Source of the DNA: Thalassobium sp. R2A62
Lineage (GTDB): Bacteria > Pseudomonadota > Alphaproteobacteria > Rhodobacterales > Rhodobacteraceae
Length of the DNA stretch: 64,000 nucleotides
Reading direction: 5' to 3'
NCBI RefSeq assembly: GCF_000161835.1
Contig: NZ_GG697169.2
Coordinates: 3,336,267 to 3,400,266, forward strand
The position numbers and the translations under genes were made by a program. This document shows positions 31,117 through 53,689 of the stretch, in pieces. The notes under the pieces are model-generated. The model saw only the letters and a program-made list of their open reading frames with translations, was not told where the DNA came from and ran no database searches. Position 1 is the first letter of the stretch, and the number at the start of each line of letters is the position of its first letter.

Positions 31117-31248
31117 CCTGAAGTTGATGAGCCGTCTCAGGCCGTCTGGTTGGTTCCAGTAGCTGTTGGCCTTGGATCATTTGGCTACCAAAACGGCTAC
31201 TGATTGATATTTTAATATTAGATACAATAACTTGCCTGTTAAATAATT

Positions 31249-31296
31249 GGATTGAAAATCCTCGTGTCGGTGGTTCGATTCCGCCCCTGGGCACCA
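31249..31296 (+). other. tRNA-Phe 3' fragment, putative attachment site (att)
   Basis: 48 bases from the anticodon arm to the end of a tRNA-Phe(GAA) gene: GGATTGAAAATCCTC gives the anticodon stem with loop TTGAAAA, GGTGGTTCGATTCCGCC the T-arm, and CCTGGGCACCA the acceptor 3' strand with encoded CCA. The D-arm and 5' half are missing; upstream bases (TTAAATAATT) do not pair with the acceptor. 3' tRNA fragments of this kind are left where an integrative element has recombined with a tRNA gene; the intact gene must lie outside the window. Confidence 0.8.
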
Positions 31297-31310
31297 TTTT
31301 TCCGAAACGG

Positions 31311-31344
31311 ATATACTCAATTTCCCTTAAAAACATGAGTATAT
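31311..31344. repeat. Inverted repeat beside the att site
   Basis: ATATACTCA (31311-31319) and TGAGTATAT (31336-31344), perfect over 9 bp; the arms extend imperfectly outward (CCGAAACG against CGTTTTCGG). Could be a recombinase or excisionase site, or a bidirectional terminator. Confidence 0.5.
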
Positions 31345-31371
31345 AAGCGTTTTCGGTTTGGGTAAGCTCAG

Positions 31372-31407
31372 AATTGCTACAGTATTTGCTACGGAAATTG
31401 CTACAGT
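31372..31407. repeat. Three tandem 12-bp repeats beside the att site
   Basis: AATTGCTACAGT, ATTTGCTACGGA, AATTGCTACAGT, head to tail with no spacer. Spacing and closeness to a tRNA att core fit arm-type integrase binding sites. Confidence 0.5.
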
Positions 31408-32245
31408 GAATGAGTTCTGCAGCTTTGAGCCTTTCAGTGTAGCCTCCAGAATGAAGGTAACCTTTCTCTTGGATATTTTATTCATCTGGGAAGGGCCATG
31501 GATCCAACTCCGTGGCTCGCAATGACCACAGGACATCCCATGTCGTCCAAGGCTTGCAATAGAAGGAGTGTATCGCTTGCCGAGTAAGCCCATCCAATGG
31601 CGCACTTGGCCATCTCCAATTTTGCGCTAACCCGAGGCTTTTTTGCGCGAAGCAGTTGGGGGCTTGCTCTCCTTTGTCCTAAGTTAAGTGTCCTGATTCA
31701 ACTGCTTCGGTGCCAGCTATGCCGATAGCGGTTCAGAGTGGCGTTGCAGAGTTGGGTTTCTGTGACCTACGGGGCAGAGTTCCTCGCAATGGGTCTTTCT
31801 TTCAGCAGCTTCACACAGTGCGTCTTTGTTTCGGCGCGGCTTCGGCGATGGTATCCGCTTCATCGCCGCCAGATGGTAACAACCAGATATCTTGAGACAT
31901 TTGCGGCCTCGCTCCGAATGATAGCGCCTGCGCTCGAGGGTTTCTACGGTTTGGCGTTCTTGCGAGAGGTACGACGGTTCGAGCTCCGCGCACGACAACC
32001 GCGTCGTAATATTTTCGGGTACCATATCTGCCGATCCATCGTCTATGACGTGGTTTTTGCCATCAGTGAGGACGCGACGCTGGCTGGGATGCTAATGAAT
32101 GATCACACATCGCAGCAAGCACGCAAAAAATACACCGGGGACCGCGCCAAGCAAGCCGCGCTTGCTGCTGCCGGCAAGGAAATAGATGACCTCTTTGATG
32201 CGTTTGGCGCATGATCCCTTTAGGGGGACATAGGCCCGGCACCAT
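31408..32245. other. Integration-end region with no sure gene
   Basis: About 840 bases between the att-associated repeats and the helicase island. One plus-strand frame (31738-32214) is open for 158 codons. Only its last 60 residues look protein-like (EDATLAGMLMNDHTSQQARK ... GKEIDDLFDAFGA) and the rest is low in that quality. It may be the tail of a lost recombinase or cargo gene, but I cannot identify it. Confidence 0.35.
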
Positions 32246-32395
32246 ACCCTTCTTGGGTTTTTTCATTGACACTTTAAGCGCCTCGCGTCGCCATAGGCGT
32301 TTGACCCTCTTGTCATTCACTTGCCAGCCTGCATCTCTCAGCAGGGCAGCAACTCGGCGATATGCGCGGACCACGTCAAGGGGGAGGCTCAAAGT
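32246..32395 (-). pseudogene. IS3-family OrfB fragment
   Basis: About 49 codons on the minus strand, AYRRVAALLRDAGWQVNDKR followed by VKRLWRREALKVSMKKPKKG, the HTH_21-like region of IS3-family OrfB proteins. The integrase core is gone. It abuts the 3' end of the drmB-like gene and may mark the edge of a rearrangement. Confidence 0.65.
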
Positions 32396-32404
32396 CGCAC
32401 AGAT

Positions 32405-34168
32405 TCATTTAAGCAAGTCTTTGAAATATGATAGCGATCCGGCACTCAACAAATTACGGTCAAGAAACCCGTTCCAAGCTTCGCAGCTGGTCTCTGGCAA
32501 GAAGACGCAATTGTGACAGGCTGCGTGGTTCCCGTTCGAGCCGCTCCGGGCCATTCCCTCTGAGCAGAGCGGATCGGCTGAGCAGAGCTCATGGTCTGTC
32601 AGTGCCTGTAGGACCAGTTGTTCCATCCTTGCTGGTCGTGCCTGTCGAGAAAGTCCTCCCATCGTGCCGTCCGCGTCCGGCGTAGAGGTGTAGATAAGTA
32701 GCCCGGCCATATTCGGCCCTACATACAGGCGTTCACGCAAGGCGCTCGAGGAGTACCCGCTGTCGAGTGACAGTCGCGCGATTAGTGCGTGTGCCAAGGT
32801 GTGGACCAGCATGTATCGCGCGTTGAGTTGAGACGGCGCGCCATCCACCAGTTTGCCTTCGGCCCGAGCCGTGTCCATGTGAGTTTGGATAAGCTGCAGA
32901 ATATGCGCTTCGACATCCGACCGCTCCTCCCAGGTGGAAACTGCCTCAAGGTTTAGCGATAGGAATACACCTTCGCCATGCATTGCGACGGCGGGCAACC
33001 ATGACAGGTCTGACCGAGACAGTGGTACCGGATCCGGTACGCCGCCGACCTGTGCCTTCAGCCTCGTAAACCCAGTCAATGCCCGCACTTCCCGCAAGCG
33101 CTCCACTGATGATATCCAGGAAATTACTCCAGAGAGTACATCGGGCACAGGTTGATGACGGTTGAGCAGAATCGACGCGTCTTCGTCAGAGGATGACGTG
33201 TCTGTCAACAGCATGCGGAACTCGCCGAGTCGAAGGTCTTCTTCGGCTTCCGTATCGCCTTCTGAGAATTCACGGTAAAGCCGAGCAATGTTTTCAGCTG
33301 TGTCATCACCGTCCCAATCGGGAAGGACGTCGTAATTGATGTAATCGATCAGTGCGGCGTCATCATCTTTTCGCCGACTCAATGCCTTCAAGTGGTCCTG
33401 AAGTCTGTCTGCGAAACCCACCTTCCAATCGGGAAGGGTAATCGCGCTCTGCTCGATCGAGAAATAGACGTTACTTGCCCCCCGTTGCGTGGTCCGCGGC
33501 GTGGCCTCGCATCCAGTCTCGCGACCGCCAAGCCATGGTCTGCCACCACGACATTTATGACCCGGAATTCCCTTTGGAGAGAATGCCTCGGACATGGAGC
33601 GCCTTGCTTCACAGGATTTGCATGTTAGCAGCAGCCCGCCGATGCCGGCCCCGATGGTTTTTAGCGCCAAAACTGGGCCCGAACACCCGGCTTCGTGCGT
33701 CAGCCAGGAAGTCCAAGGGAAATCATCGAGGTGGCCCTTTTCGCATATTGTAACGAACCGGACGGGTACCACCGCTGGTTTGCCACGACATCGGCCGCAA
33801 TGCAGGCTATCTCCGTTCCGCGAGGGCGACCATTGCCCGGAACGGTTGATGACATGGCACTCGGGACACGAGAGCCAGTCGGGAAAGCGTTCGATCGGAA
33901 GCACACGGTCCTTTGTCTGTCCGTCCTTTACGTAGGTCCCGACTGGGGGTGCCCTGAAGTGATTGACGCCCAGAAGCGCTTCGAGTCGCGGTTCCCGAAC
34001 CACATCCTGCTTGTAGCCGCCTTTCGTGTAGGCCTCCCAAGCTTCCAGCCCCTGCATGACCCCGGAAAGCAGCGCTCCACTTCCGGGTAGCCGGAAATCG
34101 ACGATTGCCCCTGGTCCGAAGGTCGAAATGATTTGGCTGCGGCGGATGCTGCCGACATTCTTGCTCAT
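32405..34168 (-). CDS. drmB: DrmB-like DUF1998 protein of a DISARM-related system
   Basis: 587 aa; ATG overlaps the stop of the drmA-like gene (ATGA). Near residue 101 a zinc knuckle CPECHVINRSG pairs with HCGRC. Near residue 138 CEKGHLDDFPW is the hallmark of DrmB proteins. More cysteines follow (LLTCKSCEARRS). The C-terminal DUF1998 part has LVHTLAHALIARLSLDSGYS near residue 453 and a final Cys cluster (CSADPLCSEG; HNCVFLPETSCE). In DISARM, DrmA and DrmB form a complex that loads on foreign DNA (established knowledge). Here DrmB is the distal gene of a three-gene minus-strand operon with drmA-like and UvrD-like genes, and no methylase. Confidence 0.85.
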   Translation of the reverse strand: MSKNVGSIRRSQIISTFGPGAIVDFRLPGSGALLSGVMQGLEAWEAYTKGGYKQDVVREPRLEALLGVNHFRAPPVGTYVKDGQTKDRVLPIERFPDWLSCPECHVINRSGQWSPSRNGDSLHCGRCRGKPAVVPVRFVTICEKGHLDDFPWTSWLTHEAGCSGPVLALKTIGAGIGGLLLTCKSCEARRSMSEAFSPKGIPGHKCRGGRPWLGGRETGCEATPRTTQRGASNVYFSIEQSAITLPDWKVGFADRLQDHLKALSRRKDDDAALIDYINYDVLPDWDGDDTAENIARLYREFSEGDTEAEEDLRLGEFRMLLTDTSSSDEDASILLNRHQPVPDVLSGVISWISSVERLREVRALTGFTRLKAQVGGVPDPVPLSRSDLSWLPAVAMHGEGVFLSLNLEAVSTWEERSDVEAHILQLIQTHMDTARAEGKLVDGAPSQLNARYMLVHTLAHALIARLSLDSGYSSSALRERLYVGPNMAGLLIYTSTPDADGTMGGLSRQARPARMEQLVLQALTDHELCSADPLCSEGMARSGSNGNHAACHNCVFLPETSCEAWNGFLDRNLLSAGSLSYFKDLLK

Positions 34169-37100
34169 TGGATTTCCTCAGCGCCCGATGGCTCAATTTC
34201 CTTGATGACAAATCCTGTCGATGGTTCGACAACGCGCAACGTTCCCGGAGTAGCCCTTGCGAGACCCTTGGAAAACCCGACAGCGTTCGATGTCGCATGT
34301 GCGTCGGCCGAGATCAGCAGGGCGTTGTCCGACCAGTTGTCCCAGTATTCCGGCAACGTTCCGCGACGCAGCCAGAGCTTCAGGAAATCATCAAGTTCGC
34401 GACGGGCGGCCATGGCCTCGCCGGCGTCCACGTTGGAGATCCGCTGACATATCTGATCAATCAACGCTTCGAGTTCTGCTTGATGTTTTTCAGCGGCAGA
34501 CGGTGTGTCCAGCATGCCTGGCACCAGATGCCGTGCCATTGCAACGAAGGGAGCATGGAGCGCCTTGTCGCGCGCCCTAGGGGCGAAAGGTGTCACCCCC
34601 GTCGCCTCTACATCCCGGTAGAGGGCGCCATGCCAAGTCGGAAACGTCTCGTAGCGGCTGCGGTCGCGGGACTTGCTCGCATTGTAGAGCGTCACGACCA
34701 ATCCAGGCACCTTTCCGCGCCCGACGCGGCTCGTCGCCTGAATGTATTCCGCGATGGTCTTCGGTTGACCATTTACCAACATCAGGCCCAGACGCCCGAC
34801 ATCGAGACCGACTGAGATCATGTTGGACGCGAGCACGACATCGGCAGCCTCCCCGCTGTCACGGGTTGTATCCAGCTCCAACAGCTTGTCACGGATTTCC
34901 TCAGACTTCACCCGACTCGTTAGCTCGGTTGGCGGTTGAAGGTGGCGGGGGACTTCCTCACGCCGTGCCGAAATCAGTTTGAGGCCGTGTGTGACGTCGT
35001 CCTGCATGATGATCGAAGCGCTGCCCAGTTCGCGCAGCGAGTTGAAGTAGCCGACGAGGGTCCAGTAGTGATCCTCCTCTGCGCTGGAAAATGAGGGGTC
35101 GGCAGCCGATTGGAGGAGCGACGATGCGATGGCCTGATAAATGTAGCTTCCGGTGCGGCCCGCTGTGGTAATGCCCAAATACAGCCGACCGGGACTGTCC
35201 TCTTCAATACAGGCAAAGCCTGAATTGGAATGATGCAATCCGGGCGGTGGAAATTGCATGACAGTGCGGTTGAACAGATTCAGGACCTGATCTTCCGCAC
35301 GCCGGATCGTTGCGGTGGAACCGATCACCTTCGGCTGTCGGATGTCTCGGGCGCACAATGCGTCAATGGCCGTTTCGAACAGGCCTGCCATGCTGCCCAA
35401 AGGCCCGGAGATGAGGTGCAATTCATCTTGGATGATTAGGTCTGGCGGCAGGCGCCCTGCGTCACCAAGTCCAAACAAGCGACCGGTTTCTTTCTTTGTC
35501 ACGATCTGGACGAACTTGTCTACTGTACCCAGAAGCAGTGTCGGAAGCTCGCGGTAAATATCCTCGTCGACCGTCCAGAACGGAAGGTGATCGCGCGTCT
35601 GGCCCGATCTGCATGTGTTGTCGCGACAGCATGCATGTATCCGGTCGCCACTCTCAGCCACATCCCAGTCCAAGTGTGACCCACAGTCCGGGCAATGTTC
35701 GATCTGTGCGGGGGAGCCGGTCTTTTTAGTCTCATCAATCTTGTTCGGTGTAGTATCCCTGCCAACCCAGAGGCCGATGGAAATAGGCGCGCCTTTCGCG
35801 AGTGACGGTGGAATGCTGATGCCGGGGCAATCGCAGTCGCCTGTCCGCAACAGATCGCAGGCAAGGATCATCGCTGCAGCTCGTTGGAACTGCTGTGCCG
35901 TCAACAGCCGCAGCGTGTAGCGCATCAGCACGGTCACGCCTTCCGTTTCCTGTCCGCCCTGCTGGCGACGAAGAAAAATGGTGTAGGCGGTCAACAGAAG
36001 ATAGGCTTCGGTCTTGCCGCCCCCGGTAGGGAACCAGAGCAGGTCCATCACACCGCGATCTGTGTGATCCTTGTCTCCTGTCGATGCCATGCAAAGAAGG
36101 ACGAAGGCCATTTGAAACGGCCGCCAAATCAAAGGAGAAACCCGAGCGTCCCTTTTCCGCTTCCATTCGTTCTGCTGCCACAATGCTCGATTGGCGAGAC
36201 GGAATGCGAGCATCTCGGGCCCATCTTTCTGGAGGAGTTCAATGCCGCCCCGCATCCTCATGAGAGCGTTCCGGCACTCATTCATATGGCGATGCGCCGT
36301 GTCCTGCAGACTTGGTGGCAGCGTGCCCACCTCGGTTTCACGGTCTGAAATCCAGTCGTCGTAACATGCGCAGAGCGCTTCGAGCGCAGCACAGACGTCC
36401 GCAGCTGCTGCCACAGACAACCACTCGGATCCCAAGGCACCCTCCAGTTTTGACGCGACGAGTTTTGCAAAGTGTGCCGGATCGCCAAGCGGTCCGGGTG
36501 ACTTGACCAGCTTCGACGGCAGCCACTCGGTCGAGAGCCTTATTGCTCCATCTGGCAGTCTTTCGCTTCGGATAGAGCAAGTGTGTCCAGCACCATAATC
36601 CGGCGCATCGCGATAAAGCAGCGCTGCTGTGGCGCGGTCTTCTTCACACACACGTTGCAACGGATCCGGGCGGGGAACGATGGTGGCAAAGTCTGGATCA
36701 GCCTCCACGGCAAATTCGACTTGATGCAGGTTTCCGACATCCCGTAATCCACGTTCAGGTTTGTCCGGCATCACATTCTGGTTCAGAAGAATGATTGTCA
36801 CGAGATAGAGGTCGCCATGCTTGCGCGTCCGCAGCCAGAGCGCCAAGTCTGGGATGCCGGGAACGTCGTACTTGCCGTCCTCGTCGCCGGGTAATTCTAT
36901 AGACTTTCGGGCTGCCAAGGGTTTTCGTTTCCAATCGAAACCGGGGCGACCTTTGTCGGACGCCGCACGAGGACAGGCCTCGTATTGGGATGCCGAGACG
37001 TTCAGGTTGAGCAGAACATTCTCTCCATCCTCGGGCCGCACCGCAAATGAGAGACCCGCTGAGCTGGGGCGAAACGTGTCCGGTGGCACACGGGATATGG

Positions 37101-37320
37101 CATCGTCTTCCTCATCCGATGCAAGTACCGCACCTTCCGTCTCATCGACTCCATGTGGGCTTTTCTGCGCAAAGAGGATGCCGGTCATGTAGATTTCTGA
37201 CGGGCTGTCTTGCAGAATTTCGTCCGCGGAAAGCGGACCCATAAGATCCTGTGTCAGGCGCTCGACCATTCGCTGGCGTGCAACGTCTGTCTGTTTATCT
37301 GTCACCTTCAATCCCTTCAT
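34165..37320 (-). CDS. drmA: DrmA-like SF2 helicase of a DISARM-related system
   Basis: 1051 aa from ATG 37320 behind GAGGGAGAG. Residues 1-400 are an N-terminal DISARM-type region. Walker A is WFPTGGGKTEAYLLLTAYTI near residue 430; an inserted zinc ribbon (HCPDCGSHLDWD ... CCRDNTC) lies around residue 535-560; motif II is LIIQDELHLISGPLGSMAGL near residue 630 (Asp-Glu-Leu-His); motif III GSTAT; motifs V/VI VVLASNMISVGLDVGR and YIQATSRVGRG near residue 863. These match DrmA closely. Expected role is ATP-driven DNA binding or translocation. The gene overlaps the upstream UvrD-like gene by 26 bases and drmB by 4, so the three are translated together. Confidence 0.88.
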   Translation of the reverse strand: MKGLKVTDKQTDVARQRMVERLTQDLMGPLSADEILQDSPSEIYMTGILFAQKSPHGVDETEGAVLASDEEDDAISRVPPDTFRPSSAGLSFAVRPEDGENVLLNLNVSASQYEACPRAASDKGRPGFDWKRKPLAARKSIELPGDEDGKYDVPGIPDLALWLRTRKHGDLYLVTIILLNQNVMPDKPERGLRDVGNLHQVEFAVEADPDFATIVPRPDPLQRVCEEDRATAALLYRDAPDYGAGHTCSIRSERLPDGAIRLSTEWLPSKLVKSPGPLGDPAHFAKLVASKLEGALGSEWLSVAAAADVCAALEALCACYDDWISDRETEVGTLPPSLQDTAHRHMNECRNALMRMRGGIELLQKDGPEMLAFRLANRALWQQNEWKRKRDARVSPLIWRPFQMAFVLLCMASTGDKDHTDRGVMDLLWFPTGGGKTEAYLLLTAYTIFLRRQQGGQETEGVTVLMRYTLRLLTAQQFQRAAAMILACDLLRTGDCDCPGISIPPSLAKGAPISIGLWVGRDTTPNKIDETKKTGSPAQIEHCPDCGSHLDWDVAESGDRIHACCRDNTCRSGQTRDHLPFWTVDEDIYRELPTLLLGTVDKFVQIVTKKETGRLFGLGDAGRLPPDLIIQDELHLISGPLGSMAGLFETAIDALCARDIRQPKVIGSTATIRRAEDQVLNLFNRTVMQFPPPGLHHSNSGFACIEEDSPGRLYLGITTAGRTGSYIYQAIASSLLQSAADPSFSSAEEDHYWTLVGYFNSLRELGSASIIMQDDVTHGLKLISARREEVPRHLQPPTELTSRVKSEEIRDKLLELDTTRDSGEAADVVLASNMISVGLDVGRLGLMLVNGQPKTIAEYIQATSRVGRGKVPGLVVTLYNASKSRDRSRYETFPTWHGALYRDVEATGVTPFAPRARDKALHAPFVAMARHLVPGMLDTPSAAEKHQAELEALIDQICQRISNVDAGEAMAARRELDDFLKLWLRRGTLPEYWDNWSDNALLISADAHATSNAVGFSKGLARATPGTLRVVEPSTGFVIKEIEPSGAEEIQ

Positions 37321-39601
37321 CTCTCCCTCCTCGCGCTACGCCGTGAAGCACCGGCAACAAGGTCACAGCATCGATCCTGCCGTCGTTCCGACGGTCAACA
37401 ACCGTTGAGGCCCCGACCACGCGAATGGTATCAGAAGCAATCTTTCCTCCTGTGACCTCGATGTGATCGAGGTCCTCAGCCAGCGTTGCTTGTACTTCCG
37501 CCAAAGGCTCTCCTCTTTCGGTGAAGAGACGCCAAGGTGCCCCGGCATCCGGCGAAGCTCGCCTGAAGGAGCAACTCGGTTGCTGGAATGCTGCTTCCCA
37601 GACGGACAGAGCTGGAGCGATCCCATCTAAGGGCCGTAAGCCCTCCGTGCCGGACAGCAAAAGGCCTCCGCCATTACCGCGCAACCATCGGCTACCGTTC
37701 GGTCCGGATCGAACCGTGGTAGATTGAGCCCTCCCGAGATAAAGGTTCGTCGATGCCCTTGTCGCACCGACGAACAGAATCCGCGCTTCTTCTTCCCAGT
37801 TTACGTCTTCATAGGTTGGAACTGGTGGGAGCATGAGAAGGACGTTCGATGCCTCTCGGCCCTTCGCACCATGAATCGACCCCAACAGCGGACCTGCGGT
37901 GCCCACATGGTCACGTGTGAGTTCCACTGGCTCTCGGGCAATCGTTTCGCCGATGTCTTTTAGACGCGTCGCGGACTCATTGCCGAGGGCTTGTAGATCG
38001 GTAAGGATGTCTTCTGCCTCCAAAGCGAAAGGTGCTGGGTGGAGGTCTGCGAGTCGTCGCCGCACATGTTCAATACGAATGGCCGCCCCAGGAGAAATGC
38101 CAGCACAGATTGCACCAACCACAGGATCGCAAACTGTGGTCTGTCCAGAAAGTTTAAGGCGATGGGTGCGCGCGGCTCGTGTTAGCCGAACTGAAGCCGC
38201 TTCGGTTGCGGCGCGCCCTCGGAAAAGGATGAGACTGTCATCTCGCCAAGGGAATACCGGCCCGGTTAGGCTCACATTTGGATCCGTCGCCACGTCTTCG
38301 AGCATTTCTCGGAGTTCGATATAAGTGGAATGCGGGTCACCGCCTGACTCAAGGAGCGCTCGGGCTTGCCTGAAGAACTGCTGTAATTCTGACGACCTCG
38401 TCCGGTGGTTAGCGGCTAACTGCCGGTTTTCCCAACCATGTCCATCGCGGAGTTCGGCGTGAAGAGGCCGCCCGCCCTCGCTGTCGCCTGCCCAAGACCC
38501 GTAGATCGCCTGCGCACTGTCGCCCAGAATCGTGACGCCGATGCTCGAAGGCATGGCATCGATCAGGGCGCGGCAAAACATGCGCCGTTCACCGACGATA
38601 TCCTGCGCCTCGTCGATCACCAGATGGGAGATGCGCGAAATTTGATCCAGCATAGCCTGTTCGCCGCCTGTGATCGCCTTCCGGGCGGTGCGGATGACCC
38701 GCTCGTATCCACCTGGGGGAGCGTCGCCGAGTGTTGTTACGAGGTTCCACGCTAGTGAGTCTATGGTGCCGCACACAACACCACCAGAGTAGGTGTGTTC
38801 ACCTAAGGCGGCCGAAATGCGACGTCCCACCTCCTCGGCGGCGACCCGGGTGAACGTGATGAGACGGATGCGTGCCGGCGAAAGCCCCTGCTGCACCAGG
38901 TTGATGACGCGTTCTGTAGCTGTGTGCGTCTTACCACTGCCGGGCCCTGCGGTGACAATCTGCCGCGCGGTTGCCGAACGTTCGATGACTGCTAACTGTG
39001 ACGCATCGGCGACATTACCATTGTTCTGAGACAGTGGAAAATGCTCACGTATCCAAGTTGATACAGCATCCGAGATTTTTTGCCCCGGCATGATACCAGC
39101 AAGACATAACAATCGAATTAATGGGGAAGAGGGCGCAAAATCCAAGTGCCAGACCCCGTTATCGAGCAACTGCCAGAGAGCGGTAACTTCATCATCCGAG
39201 AGGTATCCAACATAGTCGAAAACACCGACAGCGTCTTGTGGCACCACGTCTGTAGCTCGCAATAAACCATGAGGCTCGCCTTGCGACGGGTCTCCGCCCA
39301 AGAGGATGCATTGGTCCCCTTGATGCAATATCGATACCGCCCGCCGTTTAACGAGGACCTTGTCACCGTAAGAACGGCCTGACCCGAGATCACCACAAGT
39401 GATGAGCGCAGCCACGACAACTTCGGCCTGCTTCTTTGCTTCCGTTTCCGCCATTCCGAAGACAATGGCCGCGGCGCTAAGAGCTGCGATTGCCCTTGTT
39501 TCTGGCAAGGCACCCAGATCATGAAGATCCCTGCGCAACTGCGTTGCGAGTTTTTGCATCGGTGGGAGATCGTCTAAGGTGGCAGCATCGGTTTTATACA
39601 T
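37295..39601 (-). CDS. UvrD/Rep-like SF1 helicase in the DISARM-related operon
   Basis: 768 aa taking ATG 39601; an ATG at 39727 would overlap the divergent gene's start. Residues 1-200 form an N-terminal domain I do not recognise (DEVTALWQLLDNGVWHLDFA). Helicase motifs are complete: Walker A IVTAGPGSGKTHTATERVIN near residue 215, motif II HLVIDEAQDIVGERR near 329, LGDSAQAIYG (motif III), SIHGAKGREASNVLLM near 575 and ILFVGATRASTNLYLGRAQ near 608. It would unwind DNA 3' to 5'. A C-terminal beta-rich tail (FRRASPDAGAPWRLFTERGE) may bind a partner. First gene of the minus-strand operon. Classical DISARM lacks an SF1 helicase. Confidence 0.85.
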   Translation of the reverse strand: MYKTDAATLDDLPPMQKLATQLRRDLHDLGALPETRAIAALSAAAIVFGMAETEAKKQAEVVVAALITCGDLGSGRSYGDKVLVKRRAVSILHQGDQCILLGGDPSQGEPHGLLRATDVVPQDAVGVFDYVGYLSDDEVTALWQLLDNGVWHLDFAPSSPLIRLLCLAGIMPGQKISDAVSTWIREHFPLSQNNGNVADASQLAVIERSATARQIVTAGPGSGKTHTATERVINLVQQGLSPARIRLITFTRVAAEEVGRRISAALGEHTYSGGVVCGTIDSLAWNLVTTLGDAPPGGYERVIRTARKAITGGEQAMLDQISRISHLVIDEAQDIVGERRMFCRALIDAMPSSIGVTILGDSAQAIYGSWAGDSEGGRPLHAELRDGHGWENRQLAANHRTRSSELQQFFRQARALLESGGDPHSTYIELREMLEDVATDPNVSLTGPVFPWRDDSLILFRGRAATEAASVRLTRAARTHRLKLSGQTTVCDPVVGAICAGISPGAAIRIEHVRRRLADLHPAPFALEAEDILTDLQALGNESATRLKDIGETIAREPVELTRDHVGTAGPLLGSIHGAKGREASNVLLMLPPVPTYEDVNWEEEARILFVGATRASTNLYLGRAQSTTVRSGPNGSRWLRGNGGGLLLSGTEGLRPLDGIAPALSVWEAAFQQPSCSFRRASPDAGAPWRLFTERGEPLAEVQATLAEDLDHIEVTGGKIASDTIRVVGASTVVDRRNDGRIDAVTLLPVLHGVARGGRDEGIEGDR

Positions 39602-39707
39602 TTTGTCTTCTATTCGACCCGGTAAACGGCCATGTCTATTGAAATATTTCTCGAAGACCTTCAATCTTCCACAACCATTAGTGGCGTCTGAATGATGATT
39701 TGAAAAG

Positions 39708-42647
39708 ATGAATGAACTAAATACCAATGAAAATTTTCTGGCACGTATTTTTTCGGACCTGTCCCGACAACGAGACGGGGGAAGTATTTACCTAATAGAA
39801 CACGGACTTCCGCGCGACAGTATCGAGGAGCTACAATACCTTGTGCGGCAAAGGGTAGAGCGGCATCAATTCAATAAGCAGGCATGGCAAAACTATCCCT
39901 TTTCTGCATGTGTGGCCATAACGGAAGCAGCTTATGAATATCGGGGGACGGGGACTGACTTCTGGCCAATGATTGAAACGGCCATCAATATCGAAATTCC
40001 AATTCAGCAACGACCTGTGATTTCTGATTTGTTCCGAGTATGCGCCAAGCGTGTCGGAACGGTGCGACCGTTTGAAGATGCATGGTCCTCGGTGTTCCCA
40101 CATATAGCTTGGCCCATCCGCAATGCTATGGTTCCCCGAGAGGTTCATGCCCCATTGGCGCGCCTTGTCAGAGTGTTCCTGAACCAATCCAGAAGTATGA
40201 GTGTGAACCGAGCCACGCTGCCGGGCTTGCGTGAACTCGCGCGCGGCTTTGGGTCTCGACGACTTGAAGCGTGGCTCCAAGACGATGACCTTGCACTCTC
40301 AGTGATCGGCTATCTCGCTACCGGGCGGGCTGGGGACTTGAGTATAGAGACCGACTTCATGCAGCGTCTCGCCGTAGACCTGCGTTCTGAAAGTGAAGTC
40401 AAACGTCTTGAGCGTGTCATTAGGGCTCGGCGGCTTGCTCAGCATCAAGAGCTGGGAAGCCTTCCAAAGGCAACTTATGAACTTCTGCTCGATGATGCAG
40501 AGGCACGCGGTCTGGCCGTCAGGGGCCCCCGCCTTACCCAAACAGAAATCGAAGCTGTCCAGTCCGATCTCGATCTCCCGCTATCGCACTTTACTGTAAC
40601 AGTCGGAGCCCGATCTACTACACTCGAGCGGTTCCTAAACGGGGATGCCGTATTCATAGGGCGCCCAGTTCGCGAGATTCCTCAACCACAAGTAACAGGA
40701 CTTGAAGCGCCAGAGTGGTTGAAAGCCGTCGTTGTTCCCGCTCAGAGTCTGCTTTTTCGAGATGAAGGCGACGACGGGTATCAGACTCAACTTCGGCCCA
40801 CAGACAGGGTGACTGCAGGAATATCATTCTATGAACTGCTGCTTGAAGGCCTAACCCCCGATGAATGGGAGGACGGGCTTTACCATTTTGTGAGCGGAAC
40901 TCAGGAGGGCGATACCGTGCTGGCTCGGCATGGGCTCCATGTGAACGTCGAGCCTCCAATAGATTTTTTCGGTGGTCTAACTCTGCATTACGACACAACG
41001 GTCGTAACGCAGGCTTCTGGGCGACCAATTCAGGCGCGGGGTAGGACCGCAATCGGTCTCATCGCCGAGCGGCTTGACCATCCGGAAAGCACCGAGTTCC
41101 GGTTCACTGATGAGCGCTGGCACCAATTGCCAATGACAGAGGGGATCTGGACACTATCCCCAATCGAAAACCCGAAGGCTCCATCGATTGATCTCTTGTT
41201 CCGTGATATCGAACCGCCCGCGCCTGCAACCCTGTCTCTTCAACCTGAAGGGATCGGCCTTTCGGAAATGGCGCGAGGCGCAGGTGCTCTGCATCTCATG
41301 ACACCGATCACGTTGCACGATATCGACATCGATATCACGCTGGAATCCAGTGACGGTCAATCCAAAACAGTACATTTCCGTGCATCGACCTCGCCCACGA
41401 CGATTGCATTTGACAGACCCGAGTTTTCTGAATTCCGGGCTGCGGCACGTCTTTGGGCCGGGGGCGCTATGCACGCCCGCTTGCGGGCTCATGCAGCATC
41501 GCTGGACACCCGGTCTTGGAATTTGGCGGTGCCGGAGCCGGAATGGAAGTATGACCGTCGAAGCGGTAAATGGAACAGGGAAGGCCAAGAGCCGGTCGAG
41601 TCGCTTGTCTGCGATCCCGTCAAATCGTGCGCCATTTTTCAACTAAAAAGTCCATCATCCACCAGCCGGTCGTCGGGATATCGGCTTTTACAACCGAGTG
41701 GGTCGAGCGATGGCACCTTGCAAAGCTGCTTGGTGGAAGAGCCCGAAGCTGGGACGATTCTTGAGGGATTGCCCCGCACGGCTGCAGATCCGATCGCACG
41801 CCATTCCGAAACCCGAGATGACATCTGTGGCTTGATCAGCGGGTTTGAAGCTTTTCTAAGTTGGAGCCTTGCCTCAGCAGAAACTGTGGTGGGCGAAGGC
41901 ATTAGATCGAGCGCTTGTCGATGCCTTGAGGAACGGCTGGTCGCCGCGCTCTGCGGTGATCTCTGGATGAAGGCGGAAAAATCCTGCCGTGGTCTGGATG
42001 AAAGTTTTCACCGGCGGCTGGTCGCCGGAGCAATGAGGTTAGGTCTCGTTTGTGGCACCACCGCCTTCTCGCCGTTGGGTGAGCATGATAGAATCGAATT
42101 GGCCGACTTTCTGGAGGAACGCTTTCGCCGCGCTTTGCCCGCGCCAGACCTGATTGTCATTCCTGATGGCGAGATGTGGCCGGAAATGGACGACGCGGTT
42201 ATTGACGCCTGGGAGCGGCTTTCGGAGAAGGCCATATCTACCGGCTCTTCGGAGCTCGAATTCGACGCGGGCAACGCCGATGGAAGTTGGCAAAAGGCGG
42301 TGGGTCTTGCCCGTGATGCGGCTCGTCTTCCTGAATTGACCGCGCTTCTGTTGCCGTCAGCGCGTGCTGTCAGTCTCGAAAGGGTTCCATATGAATCCAG
42401 CAACTTTGACGATCTAATTGCTGCCTTGGTTTCCACCCACTTTGACGTGCAGTCCCGCAGCGGTCGCTGGATTGCCCCTGCTGATCTGCGAACCCTGTTG
42501 CATCTGTTCCTTGCTCCGGAACGTGTCATGGATGATCCGGAATGGAGGGGCAGACTGCTACGCTTCGGGGCGGATCGTTTTACTGCACGCGCGGTGCGAT
42601 ATGCTGCCCTGCGCTACCGCGCAATGACGAATGTTGGCTTTTCATGA
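39708..42647 (+). CDS. 979-aa protein of unknown family in the defence island
   Basis: No family recognised. It starts MNELNTNENFLARIFSDLSR with little ribosome site. Residues 1-290 look helical (VERHQFNKQAWQNYPFSACV; RLARVIRARR-like runs). Residues 310-640 are beta-rich (LTLHYDTTVVTQASGRPIQA; TPITLHDIDIDITLESSDGQ). Residues 690-979 are helical again (DDICGLISGFEAFLSWSLAS; EEKFRRALPAPDLIVIP-like). I see no nuclease, methylase, ATPase or membrane motif. It is divergent from the UvrD-like gene and overlaps the SNF2-like gene by ATGA, so it works with that helicase. Position and size suggest a scaffold or recognition subunit (inference). Confidence 0.85.
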   Translation: MNELNTNENFLARIFSDLSRQRDGGSIYLIEHGLPRDSIEELQYLVRQRVERHQFNKQAWQNYPFSACVAITEAAYEYRGTGTDFWPMIETAINIEIPIQQRPVISDLFRVCAKRVGTVRPFEDAWSSVFPHIAWPIRNAMVPREVHAPLARLVRVFLNQSRSMSVNRATLPGLRELARGFGSRRLEAWLQDDDLALSVIGYLATGRAGDLSIETDFMQRLAVDLRSESEVKRLERVIRARRLAQHQELGSLPKATYELLLDDAEARGLAVRGPRLTQTEIEAVQSDLDLPLSHFTVTVGARSTTLERFLNGDAVFIGRPVREIPQPQVTGLEAPEWLKAVVVPAQSLLFRDEGDDGYQTQLRPTDRVTAGISFYELLLEGLTPDEWEDGLYHFVSGTQEGDTVLARHGLHVNVEPPIDFFGGLTLHYDTTVVTQASGRPIQARGRTAIGLIAERLDHPESTEFRFTDERWHQLPMTEGIWTLSPIENPKAPSIDLLFRDIEPPAPATLSLQPEGIGLSEMARGAGALHLMTPITLHDIDIDITLESSDGQSKTVHFRASTSPTTIAFDRPEFSEFRAAARLWAGGAMHARLRAHAASLDTRSWNLAVPEPEWKYDRRSGKWNREGQEPVESLVCDPVKSCAIFQLKSPSSTSRSSGYRLLQPSGSSDGTLQSCLVEEPEAGTILEGLPRTAADPIARHSETRDDICGLISGFEAFLSWSLASAETVVGEGIRSSACRCLEERLVAALCGDLWMKAEKSCRGLDESFHRRLVAGAMRLGLVCGTTAFSPLGEHDRIELADFLEERFRRALPAPDLIVIPDGEMWPEMDDAVIDAWERLSEKAISTGSSELEFDAGNADGSWQKAVGLARDAARLPELTALLLPSARAVSLERVPYESSNFDDLIAALVSTHFDVQSRSGRWIAPADLRTLLHLFLAPERVMDDPEWRGRLLRFGADRFTARAVRYAALRYRAMTNVGFS

Positions 42648-45427
42648 ATACCTTTCATCTCACACAATCGGGTTTTTACGCCCTCGAACGCCTTGTAGCA
42701 GCCGAATCCTCGGAGATGGGTGGTGCCCTTGGTGTCGCGGCCGACCCCTATCCACACCAAATCGAAAACCTGCGCCGTATACTTGCTGATACGGAAATTC
42801 GCCACCTGCTCGCTGATGAGGTCGGCATGGGGAAAACTGTGCAGGTACTGATGATTTTGAACATCCTGCGACGGCGCGATCCATCACTAAGGGTCGCGAT
42901 CGTTGCTCCGGACCGGATCTGCTATCAGTGGCAGGTTGAATTATCTGCTCGCGGACATTGCGCAGCGCTAATCCTTTCGGATGCAGATGGAGCCCCAGAA
43001 GTCCCGGATGGTGAGGGCCACGTCCACCTAATCAAAGCAGACATGGTCCGCAGGCAACCAGCACGCCCCTCTCCTGAAGACTATGATATGTTGATCGTCG
43101 ACGAGATTCACGCCATGAATCTTGAAGACGCAGCGTTCCTTTCAAGCCTTTGCCGCGAGCGCCGAAATTCTGCTCGTTTCAGACATGTGTTGCTGCTGAC
43201 TGCAACGCCGCGACTTGGAAATCCTGCGTGGGCGCGTGCTGTCATCGGCGCAATTGAACCAGAGCGCACTGCGATCGCTGGCATTCTTGGACTTGAACCT
43301 CTCGACTTTCTTGCTGAGGACGCCGCTATGGCGCAGGAACGTGTGTTGGATGGGTCCCTGTCGGCTAAGGCCTACAAGACAGCCTTCGCGGCAGACCGCC
43401 GCATCCTACGCCAGACTCGGGCCCAATGGCCGGGCATTGCGCCGGTGCGAAAGGTTCACACTGTCCGGACCGCACCTTCCGATGCCGAGATGCCGAAGAT
43501 CATGCTGCAGAACGCGGCGTGTCGTGACGGCCAAGACAACGCTCTCGAGTCCGCACCATGGCTTCAGTGCCGTCAATTGTTCCGCGCCACATCCAGTGTT
43601 CGAGATGTACTGCGTCACCGGACGTTAGCGGCACATTCGAAACTGCGCGACGAGGTGGAAACGACCCTGTCTCGCAATCCCGGCAATGCATTGCTTGATG
43701 ACCTGTGCGACTTGCTGCTCCATTTCTGGAACAAGGATCCTGAGCGGCCCATCATCATTGTTGCGGGAGATACGCCCACTGTGGACATGCTTGAACGGCG
43801 TCTTGGAGATATGTTCCCCCATCTGGCAAATAACGGCATAGCGACCATGCGCGGTCGCTATAGCACGGATCTGGTGGATGTCGTGGGCGCAGTCCAAAGT
43901 CAGGCGACCGTGTTGATCATGGAGGAGTTCGTCGAAGCGGGTCTCAATCTCCATAACTTTGCTGCCGACATGGTCTTCTTCAATCTTCCTTGGCAGGCAG
44001 CGCGGATCGACCAGCTTATTGGCCGCCTCGACCGACTGCGCTCTGGCGGGCTCAAGTCCTACTTGGACGACCGCAGCGTGGGCACGATCGGCATTTGGCG
44101 CATGGTCGTCGTCGGCTCGGCAGATGAAAGGGTGCTTGAGGCACTCGACCTCCTTGACGTGTTCGAACATCCATTGCCTTACCTCGACGAAGACCTTTCC
44201 CAACGCATCGACCAGATCATCACTGATGCGGCGGCAGGACGGGCCGATTTCAAGGAGTCTGCAATCGCATTGAAAGGGGAGCTGTCTTTTGGGCTACAGC
44301 CATCTGTGGCCAGCGCTTCCAAAGTGGAACGGGAAAGCCAGAACGAAGGCACAATAGTAGGCAGTATTCGTGCTGCTGAGCATGCGGGGAATGCTTGGCT
44401 GCATCTCTTGCACGCAAGTGGTGCCTTAAAAGGTGGATTTCCGAAAACAAACGATGGAGAGAGGGTCGCTACGCTATCATTGCCACGCCTCTTGGAAAGT
44501 TGTCTTTACAACCTTGGCACAATGACAACGCGGGATTCTGAGGTATTTCGATGGCGTCGTGACCGACTCGGGCGACCGCCCAAGAAGGATGTTATCCTTC
44601 CGGGAGACCGGCTTGGAAAACGTGCACGTTTTTTTTCGACAGGCGATGAATTGCACGACGATCTGGTAGATCAGGCTTTCAAAACATCAAAAACCGAAAC
44701 CATTTCTCCGACGCCTGTTGGCGTTTATATTAAAGATGAGGAATCGGCGGCAGAGTTGGTTGGCAAGACGCTGCTCTTGGTTCGCGCTGCTTGGAGGCCT
44801 TCTTTGATAGAGGATCGTCGCCTCGAGGGCAGCAAAGACGACGCTCCGGCCGTCCAAATAGGACGAGCTGCCGATCGTCGCTGGGTCACCACACTGTTTC
44901 CGGACGCAGTCAGGACCAAGTGTCTTGTGATCTCTGACGATGGTGAGCCTCAATTGGGTTCTGAAAAGAACATTCGAGCGCTGTTGAGTGAAAAATGCGT
45001 GCCGACGGAGAACCAGAAAATTCAAAGGACGATTAAACCGTTCCGCGCAGTCCAAAAGTTTCTATCCGTGCTGGAAAGGGAAATGACAAAAGAGGAACGC
45101 GAGCGCCTTACCAATTTGCGCGATGAGGCGTTGACCGCCCTTGCAGATAGAAGACAGATCCTCACGTCCGAGACCGAGACTTACGTTCGATGGAAGCAGC
45201 TCAGAATCGAGCAGCTGCGAGCGCGCAACATTCAAGACAAACAACAAATCCAAATGACCGAGGGGCAGATTGCCGCGGAACAGCGTCGCATGGAGATACG
45301 TATTTCAGGAATGACCGATCGGGCGCGGCGTTTAGAAGACGTGATACTGCATCTCTCCGAGCCCATTTCGGCGGAAACCTTGGTGATGCTGGTGAGAGTG
45401 TTACCCCAAACCCATGTTGGAAACTGA
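42644..45427 (+). CDS. SNF2-like SF2 helicase in the defence island
   Basis: 927 aa from ATG 42644 (ATGA overlap with the 979-aa gene; longer readings extend back into that gene). YPHQIENLRRIL is a Q-like motif; LLADEVGMGKTVQVLMILNI Walker A near residue 60; MLIVDEIHAMN motif II (DEIH) near 152; LLLTATPRLGN motif III near 186; VLIMEEFVEAGLNLHNFAAD and ARIDQLIGRLDRLRSGG motifs V/VI near 430-465. The C-terminal 130 residues form a long coiled coil (EREMTKEERERLTNLRDEAL; WKQLRIEQLRARNIQDKQQI). It resembles the RapA/SNF2 group, which includes DISARM DrmD. It probably translocates on double-stranded DNA. Confidence 0.88.
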   Translation: MNTFHLTQSGFYALERLVAAESSEMGGALGVAADPYPHQIENLRRILADTEIRHLLADEVGMGKTVQVLMILNILRRRDPSLRVAIVAPDRICYQWQVELSARGHCAALILSDADGAPEVPDGEGHVHLIKADMVRRQPARPSPEDYDMLIVDEIHAMNLEDAAFLSSLCRERRNSARFRHVLLLTATPRLGNPAWARAVIGAIEPERTAIAGILGLEPLDFLAEDAAMAQERVLDGSLSAKAYKTAFAADRRILRQTRAQWPGIAPVRKVHTVRTAPSDAEMPKIMLQNAACRDGQDNALESAPWLQCRQLFRATSSVRDVLRHRTLAAHSKLRDEVETTLSRNPGNALLDDLCDLLLHFWNKDPERPIIIVAGDTPTVDMLERRLGDMFPHLANNGIATMRGRYSTDLVDVVGAVQSQATVLIMEEFVEAGLNLHNFAADMVFFNLPWQAARIDQLIGRLDRLRSGGLKSYLDDRSVGTIGIWRMVVVGSADERVLEALDLLDVFEHPLPYLDEDLSQRIDQIITDAAAGRADFKESAIALKGELSFGLQPSVASASKVERESQNEGTIVGSIRAAEHAGNAWLHLLHASGALKGGFPKTNDGERVATLSLPRLLESCLYNLGTMTTRDSEVFRWRRDRLGRPPKKDVILPGDRLGKRARFFSTGDELHDDLVDQAFKTSKTETISPTPVGVYIKDEESAAELVGKTLLLVRAAWRPSLIEDRRLEGSKDDAPAVQIGRAADRRWVTTLFPDAVRTKCLVISDDGEPQLGSEKNIRALLSEKCVPTENQKIQRTIKPFRAVQKFLSVLEREMTKEERERLTNLRDEALTALADRRQILTSETETYVRWKQLRIEQLRARNIQDKQQIQMTEGQIAAEQRRMEIRISGMTDRARRLEDVILHLSEPISAETLVMLVRVLPQTHVGN

Positions 45428-45514
45428 ACACCAGTCAGAAATTCCAATGCTGAATCTGATAGATATCGAACCTTAAACACGGGCGTTTTCTGCCTAATTT
45501 ATTCGGAACCATGT

Positions 45515-45541
45515 CCTGACCTCAATGAACAAGAGGTCAGG
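45515..45541 (+). promoter_or_regulatory. Perfect hairpin covering a ribosome site
   Basis: CCTGACCTC (45515-45523) pairs with GAGGTCAGG (45533-45541) around the loop AATGAACAA. The 3' arm holds the GAGG/AGG ribosome site of the ORF starting at 45550, so folding would hide it. It could also end transcription of the helicase gene, though no T-run follows. Confidence 0.55.
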
Positions 45542-45549
45542 CGAATTCG

Positions 45550-45762
45550 ATGGGCTACAAGGTTGCGAGCATTGCGTCAAAAAGTGAAAGAGCAAGCTTG
45601 GAGAATGCTTTGCTCTACATTGCAAAGGCGATCGTTCTCGAGAACGGTGACGTATATCTACCCCTGTTTGAAAAGCTGGAATGTGCGCTCAATTCCCTTT
45701 CTGAACGGGAGACGACAATTGAGCGGGCTCGCCGGATAGCACAGGAAGCACGTGCAGCGTGA
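45550..45762 (+). CDS. Small helical hypothetical protein at the island's end
   Basis: 70 aa, ATG eight bases after the hairpin's 3' arm. KVASIASKSERASLENALLY, LPLFEKLECALNSLSERETT and RARRIAQEARAA predict three amphipathic helices; slightly acidic, no cysteine pair or membrane segment. I do not recognise it. As the last plus-strand gene behind the helicase pair it may be part of the defence set, a regulator, or separate. The next 170 bases (to 45933) hold only a short palindrome GTTCCTTAAAGGAAC. Confidence 0.55.
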   Translation: MGYKVASIASKSERASLENALLYIAKAIVLENGDVYLPLFEKLECALNSLSERETTIERARRIAQEARAA

Positions 45763-45933
45763 CCTGTTCCTTAAAGGAACCTTTGTGAAAGGGCTGACGA
45801 CATCAACTCCCCGGCGGTATACAGCGCTCAGGGTATAACGAGATCACCTGATCCCGCAACGCCGGATTTGCAGGCCACTTAGTCAGGCGCTCCAACAGCC
45901 CGAAGCAAAACGACTTGGCACCTTGTTGGCGAC

Positions 45934-46065
45934 TTAGTTATTGACCACGGTGTTCTCGCTACGGTTCGTATGGATGCGCGCACCCAGCTTAGCCGCATGG
46001 TCTTGAAACCACGGTAAAAGTTGGGGTTGGTCCAGCGTGCCGGTGAGGGTGATGGTGCTGTGCAT
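45934..46065 (-). pseudogene. Truncated 43-aa ORF at the end of the glycan operon
   Basis: ATG overlaps the stop of the upstream gene (TGATG), a sign of genuine coupling. The product MHSTITLTGTLDQPQLLPWF ... LGARIHTNRSENTVVNN stops early; it may be the start of an acylphosphatase-like or other small enzyme, but resemblance is weak. Loss of the rest next to the defence island suggests that insertion of the island or a deletion cut it. Confidence 0.4.
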
Positions 46066-53641: not shown

Positions 53642-53689
53642 AACCCAGTATCCTTACTTCTGGGTCTCCGGCAAACAAGGGGCGGTTCA

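What the first reader, a model, noticed from the sequence alone, without database searches (positions are those of the whole stretch)
32405..45427. DISARM-related five-gene helicase island without methylase or DrmC
Seen: drmB-like, drmA-like and UvrD-like genes on the minus strand, and a 979-aa unknown gene plus an SNF2-like helicase gene on the plus strand, sharing a 106-bp divergent promoter, with overlaps of 4 to 26 bases inside each arm. Known: DISARM has DrmA, DrmB and DrmC (a PLD nuclease) with a DNA methylase, and class 1 adds the SNF2-like DrmD. Here no methylase or PLD protein is encoded in the arms or within several kb of them, yet a UvrD-like helicase and a large orphan protein are present. 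This points to a self/non-self rule that does not depend on modification. From memory, a DISARM-related array without methylase has been reported under the name ARMADA; I cannot verify whether this locus belongs to it.
Basis: partly seen in the sequence, partly recalled or inferred. Interest (0 to 1): 0.92.

Follow-up and report, generated by a model that had tools for sequence, protein, structure and literature searches.

The report
Five-gene DISARM-like helicase system
Five neighbouring genes in a bacterium form a conserved, probably anti-virus helicase machine related to DISARM and Druantia; it carries no DNA methylase of its own, but the genomes checked that have it also carry a cytosine methylase that could mark the cell's own DNA.

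Summary
In detail: DrmB, DrmA and UvrD on the minus strand, a 979-aa orphan and an SNF2 helicase on the plus strand, 106 bp apart. All five recur together in 12 other loci: eight five-gene copies (one with an extended DrmB) and four with an added NERD helicase gene. DrmA forms a lineage beside UvrD-DrmAB-NERD loci, apart from class 1 DISARM. It is not ARMADA, which has a PglX methylase and a fused nuclease. The orphan matches no PADLOC, Pfam or NCBIfam model, but is homologous (hhalign E 3e-30) to the ~955-aa protein of Druantia I-like operons, and orphan+SNF2 pairs also sit beside Druantia-type DruE: probably a swappable recognition cassette. Self-recognition without modification is not supported: all 8 five-gene genomes that could be searched hold a Dcm-family C5 methylase, on the same contig 2.0-5.3 kb away in six, with three kinds of restriction partner; in the window's genome it is 1.2 Mb away. 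Background is 36 of 288 genomes. Best reading: a DISARM-like restriction machine without a recognised nuclease that may borrow a CCWGG-type self mark. New variant of a known kind; function untested.

The parts
32405..34168 (-). drmB-like gene, 587 aa, DUF1998/MZB zinc-binding partner of DrmA
   Evidence: PADLOC DrmB 9.4e-77, NCBIfam DrmB_fam over cut-off, Pfam MZB, PDB 7s9v chain B 9.4e-76
34165..37320 (-). drmA-like (YprA-family) SF2 helicase, 1051 aa
   Evidence: PADLOC DrmA 8.3e-203; NCBIfam DrmAS 834.9 bits, below its cut-off 950; PDB 7s9v chain A 4.2e-131; Walker A GGGKT 433, DELH 632
37295..39601 (-). UvrD/GajB-like SF1 helicase, 768 aa from ATG, with uncharacterised N- and C-terminal parts
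   Evidence: Pfam UvrD-helicase 2.3e-20, UvrD_C_2 1.4e-6; PADLOC GajB 5.1e-20; poor model of the 789-aa form, pLDDT 48
39602..39707 (.). divergent intergenic stretch, 106 bp, presumed promoter region
   Evidence: gene coordinates; no promoter scan was made
39708..42647 (+). orphan gene, 979 aa; homologue of the ~955-aa protein of Druantia I-like operons; low-confidence model: helical N part, beta-rich middle with an Ig/FnIII-like piece at about 510-600, helical C part
   Evidence: no family in PADLOC, Pfam, NCBIfam; hhalign to five Druantia I-like proteins E 3.2e-30, probability 99.8, 735 columns; model pLDDT 45.6
42644..45427 (+). SNF2/RapA-like (DpdE/DrmD-like) helicase, 927 aa
   Evidence: Pfam SNF2-rel_dom 1.1e-8; NCBIfam DpdE 135.7 bits (cut-off 500), DrmD 77.1 (cut-off 610); ATG at 42644

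Best explanation
This is a five-gene anti-phage restriction machine of the YprA-helicase kin, a DISARM-like lineage of its own. Steps: (1) DrmA and DrmB form an ssDNA-loading helicase as in DISARM (inferred from homology to the solved DrmAB). (2) The orphan, homologous to a Druantia I-like component, is an interchangeable recognition or scaffold subunit and works with its SNF2 motor, which scans or remodels DNA (inferred from the shared cassette; the sensor role is an analogy with DruH). (3) UvrD unwinds or clears the engaged invader DNA. Sister systems carry an extra NERD helicase gene that this branch lacks (read from the tree as a loss), so it either blocks phage replication by stripping and occupying DNA or hands ends to host or neighbouring nucleases. 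(4) Host DNA is spared because a Dcm-family C5 methylase, supplied by a neighbouring or distant restriction-modification module and not by the system itself, marks it. Shown: gene set, conservation, homology, absence of the NERD gene from the locus, methylase presence and frequent linkage. Inferred: defence activity, roles, use of the mark.
For: Five genes together in 12 further loci, down to about 26% identity in the orphan. DrmA and DrmB match the two chains of 7s9v. DrmA tree of 22 rows: the ten orphan-linked DrmAs lie on one side of a branch (86/80), joined to two UvrD-DrmAB-NERD loci (12 rows, 100/100); four class 1 rows apart (100/100); five-gene loci nest inside NERD-bearing ones (98/96). 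Orphan homologous to the Druantia I-like protein; orphan+SNF2 beside DruE, NERD and a DruA-like gene in L019/L024 and L027 (L028 is a near copy of L019). Dcm-family methylase in 8 of 8 searchable five-gene genomes, 2.0-5.3 kb away on the same contig in six; its target-recognition region is 51-56% identical to E. coli Dcm in seven and 36-37% in two of the nine linked or own-genome enzymes compared, against 14-18% in seven other C5 enzymes; three partner kinds: MvaI/BcnI, GHKL-HNH-SNF2-EcoRII-N, LlaJI with McrB-like ATPase. Background 36 of 288; Fisher 3 of 4 against 36 of 288, p 0.008. DISARM DrmAB ATPase is lower with 5mC DNA, and DrmC is dispensable (PMC9142583, passages); DISARM modifies CCWGG (review PMC11676413, passage).
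Against: No experiment on any member. In the window's genome the methylase is 1.2 Mb away, its target-recognition region is only 36% identical to Dcm, and it stands beside its own LlaJI-type nuclease gene. R-M modules cluster with defence genes anyway; L002-L006 share one neighbour module and L003/L004 are near copies, so the independent linkages are about four. G014 (NERD type; its contig is only 16 kb) has no Dcm-family match, and the Azospirillum copy sits beside a different C5 enzyme with a DUF2357 (McrC-like) gene and Vsr. A UvrD-linked DrmA from Tsukamurella (L048) falls beside class 1, not with the others. Models of the orphan and UvrD are poor (pLDDT 45.6 and 48.0), so a hidden nuclease is not excluded. 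The DruH analogy is weak by sequence (hhalign probability 2%).
Confidence: 0.45

Rival explanations
1. Same machine, but no modification is needed: it recognises DNA structure (ssDNA ends, replication intermediates) or a phage protein through the orphan, as Druantia III is thought to do through DruH. The nearby Dcm-type R-M modules are ordinary defence-island neighbours.
For: [quoted passage not shown] the orphan's poor model has a helix-beta-helix layout with an Ig/FnIII-like piece; a combined profile against DruH-family proteins scores 31.7, above all 60 column shuffles (max 23.3). In the window's genome no C5 methylase is linked.
Against: Dcm-family enzymes in 8 of 8 five-gene genomes against 36 of 288 background; the methylase type is kept while the partner nuclease changes. 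DrmAB homology speaks for 5mC sensitivity (PMC9142583). The DruH match has probability 2%, and the Foldseek E-values on a poor model are 5e-3 or worse.
Confidence: 0.35
2. A true, slightly decayed DISARM that lost its methylase and DrmC; UvrD and the orphan are accessory hitch-hikers.
For: DrmA and DrmB homology; methylase and PLD absent from the arms.
Against: DrmA falls in a clade of its own, outside the four class 1 rows; SNF2 scores 77 bits against DrmD's cut-off of 610; all five genes intact with low dN/dS and together in 12 other loci.
Confidence: 0.08
3. A DNA-repair or replication-fork helicase set (like MrfAB) without antiviral role.
For: The YprA family includes repair helicases (PMC12458937, sections 3 and 5); three helicases of different kinds in one locus.
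Against: Rare, patchy occurrence: the orphan matched in 8 of 292 genomes of the order, four of them with this locus; copies on plasmids and a contig from a viral collection, and R-M neighbours; DrmA matches DISARM models.
Confidence: 0.07
4. A back-up that finishes DNA attacked by the linked R-M, or a defence against DNA that is itself 5mC-modified, working with those modules rather than reading the mark as self.
For: A relative is in line with a C5 methylase, an ATPase + DUF2357 pair and Vsr (L046); the Azospirillum copy has a similar set next to it. Eight of the nine Dcm-family methylases compared have a Vsr gene beside them.
Against: A host with its own Dcm-type methylase would be attacked if 5mC were the trigger.
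Confidence: 0.05

Closest known systems
DISARM class 1 and class 2
   Same: DrmA helicase and DrmB (DUF1998) as two adjacent, overlapping genes; an SNF2 helicase as in class 1; a Dcm-type methylase often nearby, of the CCWGG kind reported for DISARM
   Different: No methylase and no DrmC in the unit; UvrD and a large orphan instead; DrmA in a separate clade and under the NCBIfam DISARM cut-offs; SNF2 far below the DrmD cut-off
UvrD-DrmA-DrmB-NERD cassette beside an ATPase + DUF2357 (McrBC-like) pair (Rhizobium rhizogenes pC5.7d, L046); possibly the 'DISARM-like' association mentioned for McrBC in PMC11090510
   Same: UvrD, DrmA, DrmB in the same order; joins this clade in the DrmA tree (100/100)
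   Different: Has a NERD gene, C5 methylase and Vsr in line; no orphan or SNF2 match in the 26.8 kb held
ARMADA types I and II
   Same: YprA-type helicase, SNF2/RapA-like helicase and (type II) a GajB-like UvrD helicase
   Different: ARMADA has a PglX methylase and a single-chain YprA with a fused Vsr-type nuclease; here DrmA and DrmB are split and both of those are absent
Druantia type I-like operons (DruA, ~955 aa, DruD, DruE)
   Same: The orphan is homologous to the ~955-aa protein over 735 columns
   Different: DruA, DruD and DruE absent; DrmAB, UvrD and SNF2 present
Druantia type III (DruH-DruE)
   Same: A large protein with helical ends and a beta/Ig-like middle paired with a YprA-family helicase (analogy)
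   Different: No significant sequence match between the orphan and DruH-family proteins (hhalign probability 2%)
Dpd (7-deazapurine) genes
   Same: SNF2 protein scores best against DpdE in PADLOC and NCBIfam
   Different: 135.7 bits against a cut-off of 500; no deazapurine genes among the five

Membership tests
DISARM | DrmA helicase | tested here: inconclusive
   PADLOC DrmA 8.3e-203, but NCBIfam DrmAS 834.9 bits under cut-off 950 and DrmAL 619.4 under 999; separate clade
DISARM | DrmB (DUF1998) | tested here: met
   NCBIfam DrmB_fam 469.6 bits over 240; 7s9v chain B 9.4e-76
DISARM | Methylase (DrmMI or DrmMII) in the operon | tested here: not met
   none among the five proteins or the 15 further window ORFs scanned; C5 methylase only in trans in the own genome
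DISARM | DrmC PLD nuclease | tested here: not met
   no PLD domain by Pfam and no HxK(x)4D motif in the five proteins; DrmC is dispensable and often missing (PMC9142583)
DISARM | DrmD (class 1) or DrmE (class 2) | tested here: not met
   SNF2 77.1 bits against the DrmD cut-off 610; orphan matched no PADLOC or NCBIfam family
ARMADA | PglX-like methyltransferase | tested here: not met
   definition in PMC12458937; no methylase in the five proteins
ARMADA | YprA helicase with fused OB-CON-DUF1998 and C-terminal Vsr-type nuclease | tested here: not met
   definition; here DrmA and DrmB are separate genes and Pfam shows no Vsr domain
ARMADA | BrxHII/RapA-like helicase | tested here: inconclusive
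   SNF2 protein matches BrxH 9.2e-23 and RapA 4e-26, the latter below its equivalog cut-off
ARMADA | Type II: GajB-like helicase with N-terminal RelE-like domain | tested here: inconclusive
   GajB-like UvrD present; no RelE domain by Pfam, N part not resolved
Druantia | Single-chain DruE | tested here: not met
   DrmA and DrmB split; none of the 12 PADLOC families listed for DrmA is DruE
Druantia | Large partner protein of the type I-like operons (~955 aa) | tested here: met
   hhalign probability 99.8, E 3.2e-30; the one such protein scanned (L020) matched no PADLOC family, so its equivalence to DruB/DruC is only positional and recalled
Dpd | 7-deazapurine insertion genes | not tested
   not searched in the genome
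any antiviral system | Reduces phage or plasmid entry | not testable with these tools
   needs an experiment

The most novel reading that the evidence does not exclude
A modular immune family in which one 'sensor' cassette (orphan + SNF2) is mounted on either of two helicase engines (split DISARM-type DrmAB or single-chain Druantia-type DruE), and whose branch seen here has outsourced both jobs of restriction-modification: the self mark comes from whatever Dcm-type methylase is at hand (three kinds of R-M partner, or in trans), and the cutting, if any, from host or neighbour nucleases.
Probability: 0.35. Interest if true: 0.8.

Novelty: new variant of a known kind. Interest (0 to 1): 0.62.

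Why it matters
It links DISARM-like and Druantia-like systems through a shared partner protein and not only through the YprA helicase, and gives an uncharacterised 979-aa family a place. If the methylase is borrowed, self-marking is separable from the defence machine and shared between systems, which predicts when such islands can move into a new host. The claim is directly testable with dcm-plus and dcm-minus laboratory hosts.

Tried and rejected
ARMADA membership: rejected on the preprint's own definition. Hidden nuclease: a simple motif search in the five proteins and low-confidence models of the orphan and UvrD showed none; Foldseek of the orphan gave only weak, mostly Ig/FnIII-like matches (best E 5.3e-3). 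Orphan profile against sequences of solved structures: no match at E up to 10. Orphan as DruH homologue: suggestive only; parsing of the scores failed and was repeated; the aligned part differs between the two hhalign modes (residues 30-238 realigned, 503-575 not realigned). More viral copies: a scan with L018's orphan found none; a viral scan with YjiT for DruH relatives found none. Mapping the DISARM methylation-sensing residue V1296 onto this DrmA: not achieved, the printed alignments end before it; a C-terminal motif around R1029-V1031-E1032 is shared with class 1 DrmA, but its identity with V1296 is not shown. Empty-site test: the right-hand neighbour protein has no relative in 30 other genomes, so no empty site was read; no shared 12-base direct repeat between 31001-32404 and 45428-47000. 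Weak orphan matches in G152 and G141 had no such system around them and were dropped. NERD in the own genome: PF08378 has no match, but that model also failed to match the NERD gene of L018, so this test is weak.

Full report
What is there. Family searches place DrmB and DrmA firmly, UvrD and SNF2 by domain, and leave the 979-aa gene without a match in PADLOC, Pfam or NCBIfam. DrmA and DrmB match the two chains of the solved DISARM complex 7s9v. DrmA stays under both NCBIfam DISARM cut-offs, and SNF2 far under those of DrmD and DpdE.

Conservation. A scan of GTDB contigs with the orphan gave six loci, all six with all five genes in the same layout (70-88% identity). In 292 genomes of the order 8 matched the orphan: the own genome, G237 and G132 (five genes), G014 (five genes plus a NERD/UvrD-type gene), G273 and G192 (Druantia-like) and two weak partial matches without such a system. 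In 385 genomes of the class 4 matched (own genome; two Druantia I-like; one with DruA and a copy cut by the contig end), in 398 of the phylum 3 (own, G014, and the Druantia I-like G982). Of 72,556 plasmid records 6 matched: two records of Rhizobium strain TA1 and one of Azospirillum with five genes plus NERD (SNF2 of Azospirillum spans the record start), one decayed Rhizobium copy, and two Druantia-like. One contig of the viral collection, L044, has five genes plus NERD. That makes 12 other loci with all five genes: L001-L006, L016, L017 with L023, L018, L025, L026 with L060, and L044. In L017/L023 DrmB is extended and carries a GHKL-type ATPase domain. Nei-Gojobori dN/dS against L001, L003 and L016 is 0.06-0.18 in 14 of 15 comparisons, one saturated. 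The system is real, conserved and rare.

Place in the family. In a tree of 22 DrmA proteins the ten orphan-linked ones sit on one side of a branch (86/80), joined to the UvrD-DrmAB-NERD loci L046 and L047 (12 rows, 100/100); four class 1 proteins are apart (100/100) (three have an annotated DrmD; L064 is so labelled by me). L048, which also has a UvrD neighbour, falls beside class 1 (92/92). Long branches (Priestia, L. plantarum) make the class 2 side unsure, and the root is a midpoint. The five-gene loci nest within NERD-bearing ones (98/96); I read this as loss of the NERD gene in this branch. The own genome has no PF08378 match, but that model also misses L018's NERD gene, which PADLOC finds, so a copy elsewhere is not excluded. 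L046 shows UvrD-DrmA-DrmB in the same order with a C5 methylase, an ATPase + DUF2357 (McrC-like) pair and Vsr, possibly the 'DISARM-like' McrBC association mentioned in PMC11090510 (passages).

The orphan. A profile of 11 orphans finds the ~955-aa protein that stands between DruA and DruD-DruE in L020, L039, L040, L045 and L053 (full-sequence E from 3.6e-40 to 1.7e-34), and profile-profile comparison gives probability 99.8, E 3.2e-30 over 735 columns (repeated 1.9e-30; controls against UvrD, DrmB and SNF2 sets 0.1-0.4%). L020's neighbours match PADLOC DruA, DruD and DruE, the others match L020's by BLAST. In L019/L024 and L027 (and L028, a near copy of L019) a full-length orphan with its SNF2 partner lies beside a NERD gene, a DruE-like helicase of 2052-2094 aa and a DruA-like or DUF4338 gene. 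So one cassette is used with two different helicase engines. The AF2 model is poor (pLDDT 45.6) but suggests helices, then a beta-rich middle with an Ig/FnIII-like piece, then helices. DruH, the likely sensor of Druantia III, has Ig-like domains and helical N- and C-terminal regions (PMC13192584, passages). By sequence the two are not shown to be related: score 31.7 exceeds 60 column shuffles (max 23.3) but the probability is 2%. 'Sensor' is therefore an inference.

The methylase question. A PF00145 search of ten genomes found a C5 methylase of the Dcm family on the system's contig in G293, G294, G295, G296 (5.3 kb past DrmB; coordinates, distance for G293), G237 (2.05 kb past SNF2) and G132 (2.0 kb past DrmB). 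In G296 a second C5 match, weak and in two pieces, lies a few kb beyond. In G292 (L001) the Dcm-family enzyme is on another contig; in the own genome it is at 2,132,097-2,133,362, 1.2 Mb away. G014 and G273 have other C5 matches only. L002 was not held, but its fetched edge has an SNF2 gene as in the L003 module. On the Rhizobium plasmid dcm, vsr and an MvaI/BcnI nuclease follow SNF2 directly. Partner genes differ: MvaI/BcnI nuclease (L016, L025; homologue in L055), GHKL-HNH-SNF2-EcoRII-N (L030-L033; EcoRII-N by Pfam in L003/L030), LlaJI with a McrB-like ATPase (L023; homologues in the own genome, L059). Of the nine methylases compared, seven have a target-recognition region 51-56% identical to E. 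coli Dcm and two (L023, L059) 36-37%; seven other C5 enzymes have 14-18%. Background: 39 of 292 order genomes match the L016 methylase at E 1e-40 or better, among them G000, G132 and G237; G014 does not. Fisher 3 of 4 against 36 of 288, p 0.008. The genomes are related and the linked cases are about four independent events, so this is a guide only; N6/N4 methylases in the flanks were not surveyed. DISARM offers a mechanism: DrmAB ATPase drops with 5mC DNA and DrmC is dispensable (PMC9142583, passages), and DISARM modifies CCWGG (review PMC11676413, passage; the original paper was not read).

How it most likely works, and how sure. DrmAB loads on invader ssDNA, the orphan with SNF2 recognises or licenses the target, UvrD unwinds; replication is blocked or ends are passed to other nucleases; 5mC from a borrowed Dcm-type enzyme spares the host. 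That the unit is an antiviral system of the YprA kin I hold at about 0.85; that the Dcm-type mark matters at about 0.5; the whole chain at 0.45.

Not ARMADA. The preprint defines ARMADA by a YprA homologue with DUF1998 module and fused Vsr-type nuclease, a BrxHII-like helicase and a PglX-like methylase, all four genes of the tested type II system being needed (PMC12458937: abstract, passages and sections 3, 5, 7, 8, 9). Here the methylase and the fused nuclease are absent.

Print. Nine full-text searches of the held library, with the terms shown there, listed no paper whose title or abstract start describes a UvrD-DrmAB-orphan-SNF2 unit or a DISARM with a borrowed Dcm. Of the listed papers I read PMC12458937 in the parts named above, and PMC9142583, PMC11090510, PMC13192584, PMC13316683 and PMC11676413 in passages; the rest only as listings, PMC10952713 on conserved domains of defence systems included. 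Supplements were not read, so the preprint's tables may already list such loci.

Noticed in passing
L019 9545-19415 with L024 2431-10721; L027 11188-27681; L028 14896-30519 (near copy of L019): Orphan+SNF2 pair facing a DruD-like or unknown gene, a NERD helicase and a Druantia-type DruE, with a DruA-like/DUF4338 gene downstream: a hybrid of this system and Druantia.
   Followed up: partly
L020 7901-18658; L039, L040, L045, L053: Druantia I-like operons in which one ~955-aa protein stands between DruA and DruD; L020's copy has no PADLOC match; homologous to the orphan.
   Followed up: partly
L046 4344-18558: Rhizobium rhizogenes plasmid: C5 methylase, ATPase + DUF2357 pair and Vsr, then UvrD-DrmA-DrmB-NERD in one direction.
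   Followed up: partly
L023 522-3380: DrmB homologue of 952 aa with a C-terminal GHKL-type ATPase domain (Pfam HATPase_c).
   Followed up: no
L048 9444-26444: Tsukamurella plasmid: C5 methylase, a protein with a RelA/SpoT domain, UvrD, DrmA, DrmB, an SNF2-like helicase and a large gene annotated as a restriction 'subunit M' in a row.
   Followed up: no
L030 7328-13723: Module of C5 methylase, Vsr, GHKL ATPase, HNH nuclease, SNF2 helicase and an EcoRII-N domain protein, convergent with DrmB; most of it recurs in L031-L033.
   Followed up: partly
window 32063-32392 (-): Short ORF with an HTH_21 domain as in IS3-type transposases, directly behind DrmB; looks like an insertion-sequence remnant at the island's edge.
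   Followed up: no
window 52413-53312 (-) and 53381-54316 (+): Two IS3-like transposase genes (rve, HTH_21) back to back.
   Followed up: no
window 28580-29560 and 30130-31116 (+): Two neighbouring genes each with a Hint_2 domain.
   Followed up: no
L029 10322-18706: Rhizobium leguminosarum RCAM0626 carries a decayed-looking copy: the orphan is annotated in pieces and the DrmA match lies where no gene is annotated.
   Followed up: no
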